Shown: piece after piece, positions 1 through 5,114 of the stretch
How the letters are laid out: the number at the start of each line of letters is the position of its first letter
Numbering within the stretch: position 1 is the first letter of the stretch
Source: Desulfocapsa sp.
Lineage (GTDB): Bacteria; Desulfobacterota; Desulfobulbia; Desulfobulbales; Desulfocapsaceae
Assembly (NCBI GenBank): GCA_030635405.1
Contig: DAOVZA010000193.1
Coordinates: forward strand, 1 to 5,114
Direction of reading: 5' to 3'
DNA length: 5,114 bases
Program-made: the position numbers and the translations under genes
The notes under the pieces: model-generated
What the model was told of the DNA's origin: nothing
What the model saw: the letters and a program-made list of their open reading frames with translations, nothing else
Databases searched by the model: none

Positions 1-1270
1 CACTCTGTACAAGTGCTGATTCCATACTCTGACGATCTTCTAGCATCTTGTTTGCATTTTCTGCAAGTTGCTGGAATTCGGTGGAATTAATTTTTTCTAA
101 AGAGATTTTTTCTGATTCACTGGCTGCTTTATTAAAGAAACTATGGAATATTGCCAGTTCTGCGTTTAGTTTACCGACGACCAGCTTTATGATAAGGCTG
201 CTTATTATAAAAATTAGAATAGAAAAGATGCCTATTTTTAAAAAGAAGCTTTGAATTTGATCCTGTAATATATCGTTATTAGCATCTATTGTTTGTTGTA
301 AGTCATCCAGATAAAATCCAGTTCCGATTGCCCATTCCCAATCATCATAGCCCTTTACATAGCTGATTTTATCTATCAACAGTCCAGTCTTGTATCTATC
401 CCATACGTAGTTTGTAAAACCGCCACCACTCTGGCATGTCTTGACAATATCTCTGTTTATTTTAACGCCATTGGGATCAGTAATATCAATTAAATTCTGC
501 CCAATATATTTGGGAACAGGGTGACTGAGATAGAGGCCATCATATTGAAAGGCAAAAAGATACCCTTCACCTTTATCACCATATCGTGTGTTGTTTATTC
601 TCTCGATTGTTGCTGCTTTGGCCTCAGCAACCACATCTTTTAAATAAAAACCTGCGCCAATGATCAGGTTCATTGGTTTAAAAAATTTTACAAAAATAAT
701 ATTGTCCGTTTGTATTTCTGATGGGGTATCTTGGACTTTCCATGAAGAATATGCCTCACCCTTGCCCTTGATGATGTCAGTTATTTCTCTAAAAGATGCA
801 ATGGCCGTAGAGCTGTTACTGGCAGGTGAAGACTGGTTTTTGGAGAAGAGGATTTCACCTGATATATTTCCAATTATGAACAGTTTTTTTGTGTCAGTGG
901 TCAGCAGAGGAATAACTGCATCACTAATCATCTTCTGAATAGCATGATGATCCTTCTTTCCACTATTTTTGTTATAAATATTTAAGGCAACGGCATGTGC
1001 GGTATTTACACGCTTTTTTATTTCTTTTTTAAGACGGCGCGCTGATTTTTTCTGGATGGAGTCAATAGAATCGAGAAGATGATCCACTTCGTGTTTGATT
1101 ATCCCTTTATGGGACTGGATGTACTGCTGCTTGCTCTGCTCCTTTTGAATCGAATTAGTATCATATATATTTGACACCCAGAGAACACTCTGAATAAAAA
1201 GGCTAAAGAAGATAACTATAAGAAAAGAAATAAGAAGAGTGCCACTGATGCTTCTTTTGCTACTTCCCAT
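1..1270 (-). CDS. Tandem-Cache membrane sensor protein, N-terminal part (output domain beyond left edge)
   Basis: Open from ATG at 1270 to the window edge without a stop; 423 codons are visible and the C-terminus is missing. Residues 12-33 form a first membrane segment. About 35-340 form a large extracytoplasmic region, and 341-364 a second membrane segment. The outer region carries two copies of the same Cache signature, IGAGFYLKDV at 204-213 and IGTGFYLDDL at 315-324, the second preceded by a DDWEW stretch. This indicates two consecutive sCache_2-like ligand-binding domains. Residues 365-423 form a HAMP-like or coiled-coil linker (FHSFFNKAA, then EFQQLAENANKMLEDR). In related proteins this linker leads into PAS plus histidine kinase, or into GGDEF, so the output type cannot be decided here. 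The start is supported by a TAAGGA Shine-Dalgarno six bases upstream. It is transcribed away from the disulfide operon. It could be a sensor for the NtrC-type regulator at the right end, but nothing visible proves that. Confidence 0.85.
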   Translation of the reverse strand, partial: MGSSKRSISGTLLISFLIVIFFSLFIQSVLWVSNIYDTNSIQKEQSKQQYIQSHKGIIKHEVDHLLDSIDSIQKKSARRLKKEIKKRVNTAHAVALNIYNKNSGKKDHHAIQKMISDAVIPLLTTDTKKLFIIGNISGEILFSKNQSSPASNSSTAIASFREITDIIKGKGEAYSSWKVQDTPSEIQTDNIIFVKFFKPMNLIIGAGFYLKDVVAEAKAATIERINNTRYGDKGEGYLFAFQYDGLYLSHPVPKYIGQNLIDITDPNGVKINRDIVKTCQSGGGFTNYVWDRYKTGLLIDKISYVKGYDDWEWAIGTGFYLDDLQQTIDANNDILQDQIQSFFLKIGIFSILIFIISSLIIKLVVGKLNAELAIFHSFFNKAASESEKISLEKINSTEFQQLAENANKMLEDRQSMESALVQS

Positions 1271-1631: not shown

Positions 1632-2069
1632 ATGCCAAAACTTGAATCAAAATCTGATGCGAATTGGACAGTTCTCTTTCTCTGCTGGCTTCTTGTCAGT
1701 CTTTCGACAGCAGGAAGTATATTTTTCAGTTCTGTAATGGAATTTGCGCCCTGTGTTTTATGTTGGTATCAGAGGATATGTTTATTCCCCTTAGTTCTAA
1801 TTCTAGGTGTCGGGCTCATTTCCTTTGAAAAAAGTGTTGTGAAATATTCTTTACCTTTGGCTGCAGCAGGCTGGCTGGTTGCTCTCTATCACACTCTGCT
1901 CTATTCCGGCATAATTCCCGAAAGTATAAAACCCTGTTCTCAAGGTGTTTCCTGTACTGAAGAATATATCGATCTGTTTGGTTTTATCACCATTCCGATG
2001 CTCTCTTTATTTTCATTTTCAATAATAATTGCGCTGTTACTTATCTTACAAAGGAGAATCACTAAATGA
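1632..2069 (+). CDS. dsbB: DsbB/BdbC-family quinone-linked disulfide bond formation protein
   Basis: Membrane thiol oxidase that re-oxidises a DsbA-type protein and passes the electrons to quinone. The 145 residues fit the short BdbC-like branch. Four membrane segments are visible, roughly 12-34, 45-64, 72-91 and 117-140. The first essential pair is C41 and C44 in CVLCWYQR, the hallmark of the family, with the usual arginine at 48. The second pair is C102 and C108, in the loop between segments three and four (KPCSQGVSC). The start at ATG 1632 is preceded by GGAG, eleven bases away, which is slightly long; stops at 1581 and 1590 in the same frame exclude a much longer protein. Its stop overlaps the start of the DsbA-type gene by four bases (ATGA), so the two partners are probably made together. 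It is first in the operon, behind the sigma-54-type promoter. Confidence 0.93.
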   Translation: MPKLESKSDANWTVLFLCWLLVSLSTAGSIFFSSVMEFAPCVLCWYQRICLFPLVLILGVGLISFEKSVVKYSLPLAAAGWLVALYHTLLYSGIIPESIKPCSQGVSCTEEYIDLFGFITIPMLSLFSFSIIIALLLILQRRITK

Positions 2070-2719
2070 AAAAAAATGCACTGTTAGTTGTGGCGAGTTT
2101 TGCTTTAATATTTGGGTTTATGTTTGCAAGTACCTGGTACAAGGACATGCAGGCTGAAAAATCGAGTTTTATGGCTCAGGAAAATGCAGAAATTTTTGTC
2201 CGAGAACACTCTCAGACACTTGGCAGTGATGATGCGAAGGTGTATATTGTCGAGTTTATGGATCCTGCGTGTGAAACCTGTGCAGCCTTTGCCCCTTTTG
2301 TGAGGCAGATGATGGATAAGAATCCCGGCAAAATTAAACTTGTGCTTCGTTATGCGCCATTCCATGATGGGGCCGATACATTTGTTGCAATTGTAGAAGC
2401 TGCTAAAAAACAGGGCAAATACTGGGAAACTTTAGATGCAATGTTTCAATCACAATCTCAGTGGGCCAGTCATAGCAATCCACAACCTCAAAGAGTATGG
2501 GAGTTTCTTCCTCAGGTTGGGCTTGATATGGAGCAACTTAAAAAGGATATGAATGATCCTGCAATTGCAAAAATTATTGCTCAGGATGTTGCTGACGCCA
2601 AGACCTTAAATGTTCATAAAACTCCTGGCTATTTCGTTAATGGCAGGCCTTTGCAGGAGTTTGGGTATCAGCAGTTGTATGACCTGGTTCAATCTGAACT
2701 TCAGGCTGTTTATAAGTAG
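2066..2719 (+). CDS. DsbA/BdbD-family periplasmic thiol oxidoreductase with CETC active site
   Basis: Thioredoxin-fold protein expected to insert disulfides into exported proteins and to be re-oxidised by the DsbB-type protein encoded just before it. Residues 5-22 are hydrophobic with no clear AxA cleavage site, so it may stay anchored in the membrane. The catalytic motif is C69-E-T-C72 in FMDPACETC. The cis-proline loop is T186-P187 (KTPGYFVNG). Between them lies the helical insert typical of DsbA-like proteins, including LRYAPFHDGAD and GKYWETLDAMF. The length, 217 residues, is normal for the family. Its CETC dipeptide differs from CPHC of classical DsbA, so its redox potential cannot be assumed to be equally oxidising. 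AAGGAG lies nine bases before the ATG. A role as isomerase or as a dedicated partner for one substrate is an alternative. Confidence 0.92.
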   Translation: MKKNALLVVASFALIFGFMFASTWYKDMQAEKSSFMAQENAEIFVREHSQTLGSDDAKVYIVEFMDPACETCAAFAPFVRQMMDKNPGKIKLVLRYAPFHDGADTFVAIVEAAKKQGKYWETLDAMFQSQSQWASHSNPQPQRVWEFLPQVGLDMEQLKKDMNDPAIAKIIAQDVADAKTLNVHKTPGYFVNGRPLQEFGYQQLYDLVQSELQAVYK

Positions 2720-2743: not shown

Positions 2744-3250
2744 ATGAAAAAATTATCTTTAATCGTGTTGTTATGTTGTTCTTTTGTATTTCTTGCCGGC
2801 TGTGGTCCTGAACTCAAGGTTGCAACTGTTGGAAAACCAGCTCCTGATTTTACGCTTGTGGACAGGCAAGGTAAAAGTTGGACACTTTCTGAGCTAAAAG
2901 GACAAGTGGTCTTTGTTAATTTTTGGGCCACCTGGTGTGCACCATGCCGTGAGGAGATGCCTGCCATGCAGGAACTTCACGAAAAATTTCCTAAGGATAA
3001 ATTCAAGATGCTGGCCATACTCAATAAAGATGACCCGGCTCTGGCTGACAGTTTTGCAGCAAAGGTTGGAATCACCATGCCAATTCTTGATGATCAGGAC
3101 AATACGGTTGGGGCGCAATATGGCCTGACCGGTTTACCTGAAACGTTTATAATCAGTAAGAAAGGACTGGTTGTGAGAAAATTCATTGGGCCCATGCAGT
3201 GGAATGCCACTCGTTACACACAAATGCTGCAACAATTTATTGATAAGTGA
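2744..3250 (+). CDS. TlpA/ResA-family thioredoxin-like lipoprotein
   Basis: Extracytoplasmic thiol-disulfide exchange protein of the TlpA/ResA/DsbE type, a family that usually reduces disulfides, for instance on apocytochrome c. A signal sequence (1-19) ends in a lipobox LAGC with C20 as the lipidated residue. The mature domain starts with the family signature GKPAPDFTLVD (30-40) and contains the active site W64-C-A-P-C68 in FWATWCAPCREEMP. The cis-proline is P132 in GLPETFIISKKG. The length of 168 residues is typical. GGAG stands four bases before the ATG; the gap to the DsbA-type gene is 24 bases, the only real spacer in the operon. It may pass electrons to a substrate after being reduced by the two downstream membrane proteins, since no CcdA or DsbD is visible. 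Residue +2 after the lipid cysteine is glycine; under E. coli rules that would not retain the protein in the inner membrane, but such rules are uncertain here. Confidence 0.92.
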   Translation: MKKLSLIVLLCCSFVFLAGCGPELKVATVGKPAPDFTLVDRQGKSWTLSELKGQVVFVNFWATWCAPCREEMPAMQELHEKFPKDKFKMLAILNKDDPALADSFAAKVGITMPILDDQDNTVGAQYGLTGLPETFIISKKGLVVRKFIGPMQWNATRYTQMLQQFIDK

Positions 3251-3414
3251 TGAAGAAAAAAAGACAATCTGAGAAAGTAAAAATTCGTAAAGCACCCTTT
3301 GTGGCAATATTCATCTTTCTTGTACTTGGCGCAGTGGGGATCAGTCTTGGTGAGCCTTCACGAGTCCTTGAACAGGCAACACAGATCTGTCTTGCCTGCA
3401 TAGGAATTGGCTAG
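3250..3414 (+). CDS. Small CxxC membrane protein (CD1871A-family-like), 54 residues
   Basis: A mini-protein that is easy to miss. Residues 1-14 are strongly basic (MKKKRQSEKVKIRK) and 15-34 form a single membrane helix. The tail EPSRVLEQATQICLACIGIG places C47 and C50 at the extreme C-terminus. By the positive-inside rule the N-terminus is cytoplasmic and the CxxC lies on the periplasmic side. From memory, short proteins ending in an ICxxCIGIG-like motif are annotated as the CD1871A-type CXXC family, with no established function, and they occur beside thioredoxin-like and 4Fe-4S membrane proteins; I could not check this. The ATG overlaps the stop of the lipoprotein gene by one base (TGATG) and has no good Shine-Dalgarno, so translation is probably coupled. 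Its stop overlaps the next start by one base (TAGTG). I infer a thiol relay between the iron-sulfur protein and a periplasmic thioredoxin. Confidence 0.85.
   Translation: MKKKRQSEKVKIRKAPFVAIFIFLVLGAVGISLGEPSRVLEQATQICLACIGIG
3401..3406 (+). promoter_or_regulatory. Shine-Dalgarno that decides the GTG start of the polyferredoxin gene
   Basis: TAGGAA lies seven bases before the GTG at 3414. It sits within the codons for the terminal IGIG of the upstream mini-protein. It supports GTG as the start; the next in-frame ATG is residue 62, which would remove the first cysteine cluster. Confidence 0.6.
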
Positions 3415-4310
3415 TGGAATTCGTACGTAAATGGGTTCAGGCCCTGTTCTTCCTTATCACCAACGGCTACTGGAATTTTCCCGTGACCAGAGGGATATAC
3501 CAGGGACCTCTCAAGGTGATCTGTTCGCCGGGACTGAACTGTTATTCCTGTCCTGCCGCCACAAGCTATTGTCCCCTTGGCGCTCTTCAGCAGCTTATGG
3601 GTGGGATTCGACTGGCTCTTGAAAATGGTCAAATCTATGTCGGATTTTATGTTATTGGCGCGATGGGCGCAATCGGTAGCTTCGTTGGACGTATGATTTG
3701 CGGCTGGGCCTGTCCCTTTGGTCTTTTTCAGGAGCTTCTCCATAAAATACCTTCTCCTAAATATGGTATTTGGCGACCATTACGATTCATTAAATATGGA
3801 CTCCTGCTTTTTATGGTTATTCTTCTGCCTCTCTTTGCAGTCGATGCTTTTGGATTTGGTCAGACGTGGTTTTGTAAGTATATCTGTCCTGCAGGTACCT
3901 TGGAAGCTGGATTACCCCTGATTATCATGCAGCCTGCGCTTCGGGAAAGCTTAGGTCTTCTTTTTCTGAACAAGCTTATAATCCTTCTCTTTTTTATGGC
4001 TTGGGCGGTTATGGCCAGTCGGCCTTTTTGCCGGACAGCCTGTCCTCTTGGAGCTTTTTACGCCCTGTTCAGCAAAATAAAGATGGTTAAGCTTCGCCTC
4101 GATGCTCAAAAGTGTACCAATTGTGAGGCTTGCCATCCTGTTTGCCCAATGGGCGTACATTTTAATGAGTCTCCAGATGATATGGAATGCATCACCTGTC
4201 TTGCTTGTAGTAAGGTTTGTAAGGTGGGTGCAATTTCCCTTGAAATTGGAGGTGTTCCCTTAGGTAATCAAGCCTCTTATCGTCCGAAAAAAGCTCAATT
4301 GGAACCGTGA
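3414..4310 (+). CDS. NapH/YccM-like membrane polyferredoxin (4Fe-4S binding protein)
   Basis: Integral membrane iron-sulfur protein that should pass single electrons between a cytoplasmic donor and a membrane or periplasmic acceptor. Membrane segments are visible around 73-92, 125-146 and 183-201, with a further hydrophobic stretch near 8-20. It has 18 cysteines. An N-terminal cluster has C37, C43, C46 and C53 (NCYSCPAAT, then CPLGALQ). Three CxxxCP pairs at the membrane edges follow: C96/C100, C154/C158 and C206/C210, as in the Fer4_5 domain of NapH, NosR and CcoG. Two ferredoxin-type clusters come last: C234/237/240/244 and C259/262/265/269. Length is 298 residues, starting at GTG. Despite the likeness to NapH there are no nitrate reductase genes here. 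The placement after a TlpA-type protein and a CxxC mini-protein points to disulfide reduction. Its stop overlaps the regulator start by one base. Confidence 0.9.
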
Positions 4311-5114
4311 TGAAGCAGAACAAAATACAAGTTCTTGTTGTCGAAGATGATCAGGACATGCGCGATTTCATCCAGGAGATTCTGCTCGAGAAAGGCTACG
4401 CTGTAACCACGGCAGCAAACGGTCAGGAAGCGCTCGAGAGACTTGACGAATTTCCTTTCCCTATCGTCGTTTCTGATTTAAAAATGCCGGTGATGGACGG
4501 CATTACTCTTCTTGATAAAATCAATAGCAGAAAAGTCCTAAAACCCTTTGTCATCTTGATCACGGCATTTGGAGACATTGATGATGCAATCCAACTGATT
4601 AATCGTGGTGCCTATGATTACATCATTAAGCCATTTAAGCTGGAACAGCTCCTCATAGTAGTCAAAAAAGCGGCTAATGAACTTACGATGCGCCTGAAAA
4701 TAGAGGAATTGGAACAGGTAACAAAAAGTCGCAATAGCCTTCATAAGCTGATTGGCAAGAGTTCCTCAATGCGTGATCTTTTTGGCTTTATAGATAAAAT
4801 TGCCAACTCATCGGGTAACGTCTTACTTGAAGGAGATACCGGAACTGGTAAAGAACTTATCGCAAGAGCCATCCATCATACATCCACAAGAAAGGATAAT
4901 CCTTTTATAGCTGTTAATTGTGCGGCTCTTCCTGAAGGGCTCCTTGAGAGCGAGTTATTTGGCCATGTTAAGGGTGCTTTTACCGATGCTCATGCTGATA
5001 AAAAAGGTCTGTTTGCAGAAGCCGCAGGTGGTACTTTACTGCTCGATGAAATTGGCGAAATGCCCCTTGCCATTCAGGTCAAGATATTACGTGCCCTACA
5101 GGAAAGGCAGATAA
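4310..5114 (+). CDS. NtrC-family sigma-54-dependent response regulator, N-terminal part
   Basis: Transcriptional activator of a two-component system; 268 codons are visible and the gene runs off the right edge. Residues 5-120 form a receiver domain with acidic residues E12, D13 and D14, phosphorylation site D56 (SDLKMP), T85 and K107 (KPF). After a linker of about 25 residues, the AAA+ sigma-54 interaction domain starts near 145 ([11 protein letters not shown]). It shows a Walker A motif, GDTGTGKE (175-182), the sigma-54 contact loop as GAFTDA (222-227) instead of the commonest GAFTGA, and a Walker B motif, [10 protein letters not shown] (241-250). The remainder of the AAA+ domain and the expected Fis-type DNA-binding domain lie outside. 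The start overlaps the polyferredoxin stop by one base (TGATG), with a weak GGAA five bases upstream. It probably activates the sigma-54-type promoter in front of this operon. A cognate kinase may follow beyond the edge, or be the divergent sensor. Confidence 0.94.

What the first reader, a model, noticed from the sequence alone, without database searches (positions are those of the whole stretch)
2744..4310. Possible iron-sulfur-driven periplasmic disulfide reductase replacing CcdA/DsbD
A TlpA-type lipoprotein, a 54-residue membrane protein with a periplasmic CxxC tail, and a NapH-like membrane polyferredoxin are joined by 1-base overlaps. TlpA-type reductants normally get electrons from CcdA or DsbD, which are not visible. 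The polyferredoxin could take low-potential electrons in the cytoplasm and hand them through the mini-protein to TlpA. I know of no characterised pathway of this design, so this is the best candidate here for an undescribed system.
Basis: partly seen in the sequence, partly recalled or inferred. Interest (0 to 1): 0.8.

Follow-up and report, generated by a model that had tools for sequence, protein, structure and literature searches.

The report
Iron-sulfur module for periplasmic thiol reduction
The window holds a two-protein membrane unit, a tiny cysteine-tailed protein and a multi-cluster iron-sulfur protein, that probably carries electrons out of the cell to reduce disulfides, and that most sampled relatives lacking the usual machinery for that job possess.

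Summary
In detail: TlpA-type lipoprotein, 54-residue CxxC mini-protein and NapH-like polyferredoxin overlap by one base each, behind a DsbB/DsbA pair and ahead of a sigma-54 regulator. The conserved unit is the PAIR mini-protein + polyferredoxin; TlpA joins it repeatedly, in several gene orders. The mini-protein belongs to the unexplained NCBIfam family CD1871A. The polyferredoxin is not NapH: it carries six extra, predicted periplasmic cysteines. In 27 of 209 loci the first Cys of the CxxC is an in-frame TGA, mostly followed by a SECIS-like hairpin: the family switches between Cys and selenocysteine, which favours a redox-active thiol. Of 57 Desulfobacterota genomes lacking both CcdA/DsbD families, 46 have the mini-protein; of 337 with at least one, 83 (not corrected for kinship). 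In the sampled genomes with the window's gene order, PF02683 proteins are present (4 of 4), so 'replacing' fails there. Best reading: an Fe-S wire across the membrane that reduces periplasmic disulfides through a mini-protein dithiol/selenol, with TlpA as one client. No biochemistry was found; direction and electron donor are inferred.

The parts
1632..2069 (+). DsbB/BdbC-like thiol oxidase (PF02600), four Cys in two predicted periplasmic loops; oxidising arm
2066..2719 (+). DsbA/BdbD-like thioredoxin-fold protein (PF13462), CETC; oxidising arm
2744..3250 (+). TlpA/ResA-like thioredoxin-fold lipoprotein (PF08534/PF00578), WCAPC; likely client
3250..3414 (+). 54-aa membrane mini-protein with C-terminal CLACIGIG, CD1871A family (NF040920, 34.6 bits, cut-off 32)
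3414..4310 (+). NapH-like membrane polyferredoxin with 18 conserved Cys, six of them in predicted periplasmic loops (37, 43, 46, 53, 154, 158)
4310..5114 (+). sigma-54-type response regulator (receiver + AAA), cut by the window end; 1-base overlap with the polyferredoxin

Best explanation
The mini-protein and the polyferredoxin form a transmembrane reductase. Cytoplasmic low-potential electrons enter the two ferredoxin-type clusters, pass a membrane centre made by the two cytoplasm-side CX3CP motifs, and reach a second centre on the periplasmic face made by the extra cysteines. From there they reduce the CxxC (or UxxC) tail of the mini-protein, which passes them as thiol/selenol to thioredoxin-fold acceptors such as TlpA. 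In the window's lineage a dedicated TlpA lipoprotein and a DsbA/DsbB pair lie in the same gene string, so it carries an oxidising and a reducing arm. In many genomes without CcdA/DsbD the pair stands apart from TlpA and may serve unlinked TlpA/ResA-type proteins, for example for cytochrome c maturation. Shown by sequence: the pair, the cysteines, Cys/TGA switching, linkage, anti-correlation. Inferred: cluster assignment, electron direction, donor, contact with TlpA.
For: Mini and polyferredoxin go together: 79 of 80 loci plus L079 in the other order; 83 of 84 mini loci; all 81 NF040920-positive genomes of 394 are polyferredoxin-positive. Eighteen Cys invariant in an alignment of 135 chosen sequences of Desulfobacterota and Clostridia; one annotated NapH lacks exactly the six predicted periplasmic ones and keeps the other twelve. 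TGA at the first Cys of the CxxC in 27 of 209 loci, in at least two separate parts of the tree, at least 4 changes; a search that reads through any stop found 4 TGA and no TAA/TAG in 83 places; a hairpin at fixed offset pairs 6.0 of 7 positions in the TGA forms, 3.7 of 7 in 180 Cys forms; SelB over cut-off in 4 of 4 TGA genomes tested. TlpA hits 5.2 per 100 kb within 1.5 kb of the mini, none in 230 kb at 5-8 kb; at least 10 changes of linkage on the tree; also near the pair in Peptoclostridium. Both CcdA/DsbD families absent in 46 of 129 mini+ against 11 of 265 mini- genomes. All 34 mini+ genomes then known to lack PF02683 over its cut-off have cytochrome c assembly and Redoxin-family genes.
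Against: TlpA is unlinked in most loci (24 of 134 have a hit nearby). 77 of 129 mini+ genomes keep PF02683, among them 4 of 4 with the window's order. The association with CcdA/DsbD loss is not corrected for species phylogeny or completeness. Cys154 is Ser in six of 83 polyferredoxins, five of them one clade, and also in L165 and L167, gapped there, so a C154/C158 dithiol is not universal. Sec is also listed in metal and Fe-S proteins. Six polyferredoxins of a distant subfamily have no mini-protein. No solved structure of the membrane part was found; my model gave secondary structure only, no distances and no complex.
Confidence: 0.57

Rival explanations
1. The pair passes electrons to some other periplasmic acceptor; TlpA (and DsbA/DsbB) are neighbours because they mature the Cys-rich polyferredoxin or that acceptor, keeping its cysteines reduced for cluster insertion, much as MauD accompanies MauM/MauN (recalled).
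For: TlpA is linked in a minority of loci; other neighbours vary: PilZ, MTH1187-type, TatC, FdhE-like genes (names by eye).
Against: Does not explain the Cys/TGA switch in the mini-protein or the association with loss of CcdA/DsbD.
Confidence: 0.15
2. The mini-protein CxxC supplies two ligands to an Fe-S cluster shared with the polyferredoxin; the unit is an electron-transfer complex without thiol exchange.
For: 18 + 2 cysteines would make exactly five four-Cys clusters; no NF040920 hit occurs in a genome without the polyferredoxin. The selenoproteome review lists Sec also in hydrogenase subunits, a CopZ-type (2Fe-2S)-binding protein, an Fe-S cluster domain protein (UxxC) and HgcB (passages), so Sec does not exclude a metal site. 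I raised this rival from 0.12 to 0.15 for that reason.
Against: Cys154 can be Ser, which breaks the simplest ligand count; the same review passages say most uncharacterised UxxC/CxxU families are probably redox proteins.
Confidence: 0.15
3. The unit runs the other way, as an anaerobic thiol oxidase: periplasmic dithiols give electrons to the polyferredoxin and on to ferredoxin or quinone.
For: It lies in one gene string with DsbA/DsbB in 22 of 80 loci.
Against: A separate DsbB with its four cysteines is in the same string; thiol to ferredoxin is uphill by usual potentials (general knowledge); the association is with loss of a reductant, CcdA/DsbD.
Confidence: 0.06
4. Ordinary co-location: CcdA/DsbD reduces TlpA, and the pair has an unrelated task.
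For: 4 of 4 sampled genomes with the window's gene order have PF02683 proteins.
Against: Linkages in several orders and the enrichment of TlpA near the pair; six TlpA-linked loci lie in genomes without PF02683.
Confidence: 0.07

Closest known systems
CcdA / DsbD / ScsB pathway
   Same: Carries reducing equivalents from the cytoplasm to periplasmic thioredoxin-fold proteins such as TlpA, ResA, CcmG (general knowledge)
   Different: Those move electrons by a transmembrane dithiol from thioredoxin (general knowledge); here a membrane protein without a DsbD profile match, with Fe-S motifs, plus a tiny dithiol/selenol protein.
NapH of NapGH (TIGR02163)
   Same: Membrane protein with two CX3CP motifs and two ferredoxin motifs; 28% identity to one annotated NapH, of Sulfuricurvum
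   Different: Below the NapH cut-off (69.9 against 213.05 bits); six extra predicted periplasmic Cys; partner is a CxxC mini-protein, no napG in the window.
CD1871A family CXXC motif-containing protein (NF040920)
   Same: The window mini-protein is a member (34.6 bits, cut-off 32)
   Different: Known to me only as a named family; no paper with 'CD1871A', and neither its name nor NF040920 in the main text of the 2026 selenoproteome review. I found no description of the TGA forms or of the fixed partner.
Ferredoxin-thioredoxin reductase
   Same: Would reduce a protein disulfide with electrons from an Fe-S cluster (recalled)
   Different: Soluble; no sequence relation tested here.

Membership tests
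CD1871A family (NF040920) | Profile score over the curated cut-off of 32 bits | tested here: met
   34.6 bits
CD1871A family (NF040920) | Short membrane protein ending in CxxC-[IM]-G-x-G (feature read from my alignments) | tested here: met
NapH (TIGR02163) | Profile score over 213.05 bits | tested here: not met
   69.9 bits
NapH (TIGR02163) | Two CX3CP motifs plus two 4Fe-4S ferredoxin motifs | tested here: met
   twelve shared Cys with one annotated NapH
NapH (TIGR02163) | napG and other nap genes alongside | tested here: not met
   none in this 5-kb window
TlpA/ResA thioredoxin-fold lipoproteins | Redoxin/AhpC-TSA domain with WCxxC behind a lipobox | tested here: met
   PF08534 98 bits, PF00578 104.8 bits; sequence
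ResA subfamily (NF002854) | Score over 170 bits | tested here: not met
   122.8 bits
CcdA/DsbD (PF02683) | DsbD transmembrane domain | tested here: not met
   no hit in seven window proteins
Bacterial selenoproteins (the TGA forms) | In-frame TGA aligned with Cys of homologues | tested here: met
   27 of 209 loci; 4 of 83 places
Bacterial selenoproteins (the TGA forms) | SECIS-like hairpin after the TGA | tested here: met
   6.0 of 7 pairs on average; L216, L234, L246, L264 fit poorly by eye
Bacterial selenoproteins (the TGA forms) | Sec machinery in the genome | tested here: inconclusive
   SelB in 4 of 4 tested; the other 23 TGA genomes were not tested
Bacterial selenoproteins (the TGA forms) | Selenium incorporation | not testable with these tools
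   needs 75Se labelling or mass spectrometry

The most novel reading that the evidence does not exclude
An undescribed transmembrane reductase, present in about a third of sampled Desulfobacterota and in Clostridia, that uses an iron-sulfur wire and a dithiol or selenol protein of roughly 45-70 residues to export electrons to periplasmic disulfides, and that stands in for CcdA/DsbD in about one in nine of the genomes sampled; the CD1871A family is at the same time an unrecognised selenoprotein family.
Probability: 0.48. Interest if true: 0.9.

Novelty: categorically new. Interest (0 to 1): 0.8.

Why it matters
All characterised ways known to me of sending reducing power into the periplasm for thioredoxin-fold proteins use the DsbD/CcdA superfamily. 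An Fe-S route would tie thiol homeostasis outside the cell to ferredoxin-level electrons in anaerobes. It would give a candidate reductant for cytochrome c maturation in genomes that have the assembly genes but no CcdA/DsbD, give a function to the CD1871A family and add a selenoprotein family. It is directly testable.

Tried and rejected
First structure model (79 close sequences, pLDDT 59) was discarded. The second (135 sequences, pLDDT 80.6, pTM 0.78) gave secondary structure only; no coordinates lie in the box, so cysteine distances could not be measured. Foldseek gave no match at E <= 0.001, the best weak ones being ferredoxin parts; the PDB sequence search matched only profile positions of about 205-280, the ferredoxin part. 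No natural mini-polyferredoxin fusion was seen among 240 proteins over 200 aa that I held; the longest, P0240 (350 aa), is a duplicated membrane module. A viral-contig scan found no relative.

My first count of the anti-correlation used NF040920 alone: 30 of 81 against 35 of 313. It undercounted because TGA forms mostly fall below threshold. One search supersedes it: PF02683 absent in 52 of 129 against 13 of 265. Only genomes with a polyferredoxin hit got the more sensitive mini-protein search, so a TGA-form mini-protein in a polyferredoxin-less genome would have been missed. The size control used the old count (genomes up to 3.0 Mb: 29 of 57 against at most 34 of 140, since not all sizes were listed; p = 4e-4). 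An early note that all TlpA-linked loci lie in CcdA+ genomes was wrong after (six do not). Handle lists were copied by hand from the outputs. min_completeness 90 was asked for, but the tool told no completeness for these genomes, so missing genes in incomplete MAGs cannot be excluded. The mini-protein of L230 was counted by motif only (no profile hit). In six later loci (L217, L219, L235, L240, L255, L260) the mini ends 364-1,053 bases before the matched polyferredoxin stretch rather than beside it. From the tree these were left out: L221 (too few columns), L127 (truncated), L142 (Firmicute, no CcdA state), L270 (contig start) and L163 (no adjacent polyferredoxin; its genome has one on another contig). 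The hairpin control that shuffles 3' tails among TGA forms is modest: observed 6.04 against a mean of 5.67, none of 2000 reached it.

Papers: PMC13188914 was read only by term search (passages); all other papers were seen as search listings only. 'CD1871A' is in 0 papers; 'CD1871' is in one listed paper, on C. difficile vancomycin resistance, not opened. Searches showed in their listings no description of this pathway.

Full report
What is there. The window (nearest named mini-protein: Desulfocapsa sp. MAG, 98% identity) carries, on the plus strand, dsbB-like 1632-2069, dsbA-like 2066-2719, tlpA-type lipoprotein 2744-3250, a 54-aa mini-protein 3250-3414, a NapH-like polyferredoxin 3414-4310 and the start of a sigma-54 response regulator from 4310; upstream on the minus strand lies part of a dCache sensor. 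The three junctions from tlpA to the regulator are 1-base overlaps.

The conserved unit is the pair. Among 80 genome-contig loci found with the polyferredoxin (the best 80 of 467 confirmed matches), the mini-protein lies directly upstream in 79 and directly downstream in the last (L079: polyferredoxin, mini, TlpA). TlpA is directly upstream in 25 of 80, and the full five-gene order is in 22 of 80. In 84 mini-protein loci from whole genomes of one phylum (Desulfobacterota, inferred) plus one Peptoclostridium plasmid, the polyferredoxin is within 1.5 kb in 83. In 394 genomes of that phylum the polyferredoxin profile (E <= 1e-40) finds 136 genomes and includes all 81 with an NF040920 hit. In the other 55, the mini-protein was found near the polyferredoxin in 48 (47 by profile, L230 by motif), in most of them directly upstream; the seven without are six members of a distant polyferredoxin subfamily and one locus at a contig start.

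TlpA is a recurrent but not constant partner. A TlpA profile hits 5.2 ORFs per 100 kb within 1.5 kb of the mini-protein, 2.9 at 1.5-3 kb, 0.67 at 3-5 kb and 0 at 5-8 kb (84 loci). In the 80 genome-contig loci the figures are 13.0, 0, 0 and 0.34. Orders differ: TlpA-mini-polyferredoxin (window type), mini-polyferredoxin-TlpA (L097, L123, L126, L127), polyferredoxin-mini-TlpA (L079), convergent TlpA (L119, L202, L208, L204), TlpA upstream of TGA forms (L141, L165, L167) and TlpA separated by an MFS gene in Peptoclostridium acidaminophilum, a Firmicute. On a polyferredoxin tree of 134 loci, 24 have a TlpA hit nearby, and linkage changes at least 10 times (quick tree, 37 of 131 inner branches under 80% support, a few long or fragmentary rows).

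The polyferredoxin is not NapH. It scores 69.9 bits against the NapH cut-off of 213.05. All 18 cysteines are invariant in an alignment of 135 chosen sequences from Desulfobacterota and Clostridia. Aligned with one annotated NapH, of Sulfuricurvum, twelve are shared (two CX3CP pairs and eight ferredoxin ligands) and six are missing in NapH: 37, 43, 46, 53, 154 and 158. Hydropathy and charge place those six in outward loops and the twelve on the cytoplasmic side (inference, assuming cytoplasmic ferredoxin domains). Outside that alignment, one clade and L206 have Ser at 154. I found no solved relative of the membrane part.

The mini-protein CxxC is probably a thiol/selenol redox site. A search of 394 genomes that reads through any stop listed 83 places: four carry one in-frame TGA and none a TAA or TAG. 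My broader profile over 209 loci finds the first Cys codon to be TGC/TGT in 180, TGA in 27 and Ser in 2; the second was Cys in all 209 (the motif pattern asked for Cys or TGA there, and TAA/TAG frames were not read through). The TGA forms lie in at least two separate parts of the tree, with at least 4 changes and some Cys members inside the larger group. Read as Cys, the two tested match NF040920 just under its cut-off. A hairpin at a fixed distance after the TGA, whose 3' arm starts in the stop codon and runs beyond it, pairs 6.0 of 7 positions in the 27 TGA forms, 3.7 of 7 in 180 Cys forms and 3.7 of 7 in 33 Cys forms with the same C-terminal residues. Its z-score against shuffles is -1.04, and -0.17 in 40 sampled Cys forms. 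SelB over cut-off is in 4 of 4 TGA genomes tested; of five other genomes tested four also have it. Sec in place of one Cys of a CxxC points to thiol-disulfide chemistry: passages of PMC13188914 say most uncharacterised families with such motifs are likely redox proteins. The same passages list Sec in hydrogenases and some Fe-S proteins, so a metal site is made less likely, not excluded.

Anti-correlation with CcdA/DsbD. PF02683 (DsbD_TM) is missing in 52 of 129 mini+ genomes and 13 of 265 mini- genomes (odds ratio 13). PF02683 and PF13386 are both missing in 46 of 129 and 11 of 265 (odds ratio 12.8); put the other way, 46 of 57 genomes lacking both have the pair's mini-protein, and 83 of 337 with at least one. 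Absence changes at least 21 times on the polyferredoxin tree, so it is not one lineage, but the test is not corrected for kinship and genome completeness was not told. Of 34 mini+ genomes known at that point to lack a PF02683 hit over the cut-off, all 34 have a PF01578 cytochrome c assembly protein and a Redoxin-family protein, so a reductant is presumably needed; 9 of those 34 have PF13386. In that lineage the module is an addition, not a replacement.

Mechanism. I favour outward electron flow: ferredoxin-type clusters, cytoplasm-side CX3CP centre, periplasmic centre, mini-protein CxxC/UxxC, TlpA or another thioredoxin-fold acceptor. The anatomy and the comparative results are shown; cluster assignment, direction, donor and contact are inferred. 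Because DsbB and DsbA precede TlpA in the same string, the window lineage would have an oxidising and a reducing arm together (inference; transcription not tested). Four rivals are listed; the strongest are that TlpA matures the polyferredoxin or an unknown acceptor, and that the CxxC helps hold a shared cluster.

Known or new. The mini-protein family has a name (CD1871A) and no paper under that name in the library searched. None of the literature listings I obtained shows this pathway, and the main text of the 2026 selenoproteome review does not contain NF040920 or CD1871A. The library covers open-licence papers only, and I opened one paper, by term search.

Noticed in passing
L252, L254, L259, L267, L268, L269: A distant polyferredoxin subfamily (180-191 bits) has no CxxC mini-protein; all six have just upstream an ORF ending ...NYPDL..LKGR.PCPT, perhaps a different partner.
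   Followed up: no
P0240: A 350-aa polyferredoxin with an extra copy of the FCK.ICP-containing membrane module.
   Followed up: no
L028-L080, many loci: In other Desulfobulbales the pair sits in a recurrent order PilZ proteins, an MTH1187-like small protein, mini, polyferredoxin, SH3-type protein, without TlpA (names by eye).
   Followed up: partly
L114, L128, L138: TatC-like gene directly upstream of mini and polyferredoxin in three genomes without PF02683 (name by eye).
   Followed up: no
L204, 2.0-3.8 kb downstream of the mini-protein: Three TlpA-like ORFs on the opposite strand near one pair.
   Followed up: no
Redoxin hits: A number of Redoxin-family genes in these genomes also carry one in-frame TGA, so selenoprotein use looks common in the group.
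   Followed up: no
window 2-1270 (-) and 4310-5114 (+): A dCache sensor fragment diverges from the gene string, and a sigma-54 response regulator overlaps its last gene; a regulator is directly next to the pair also in L001, L006, L007 and L010.
   Followed up: partly
G231 and G320: Two copies of the pair in one genome; in G320 only one copy is TlpA-linked.
   Followed up: no
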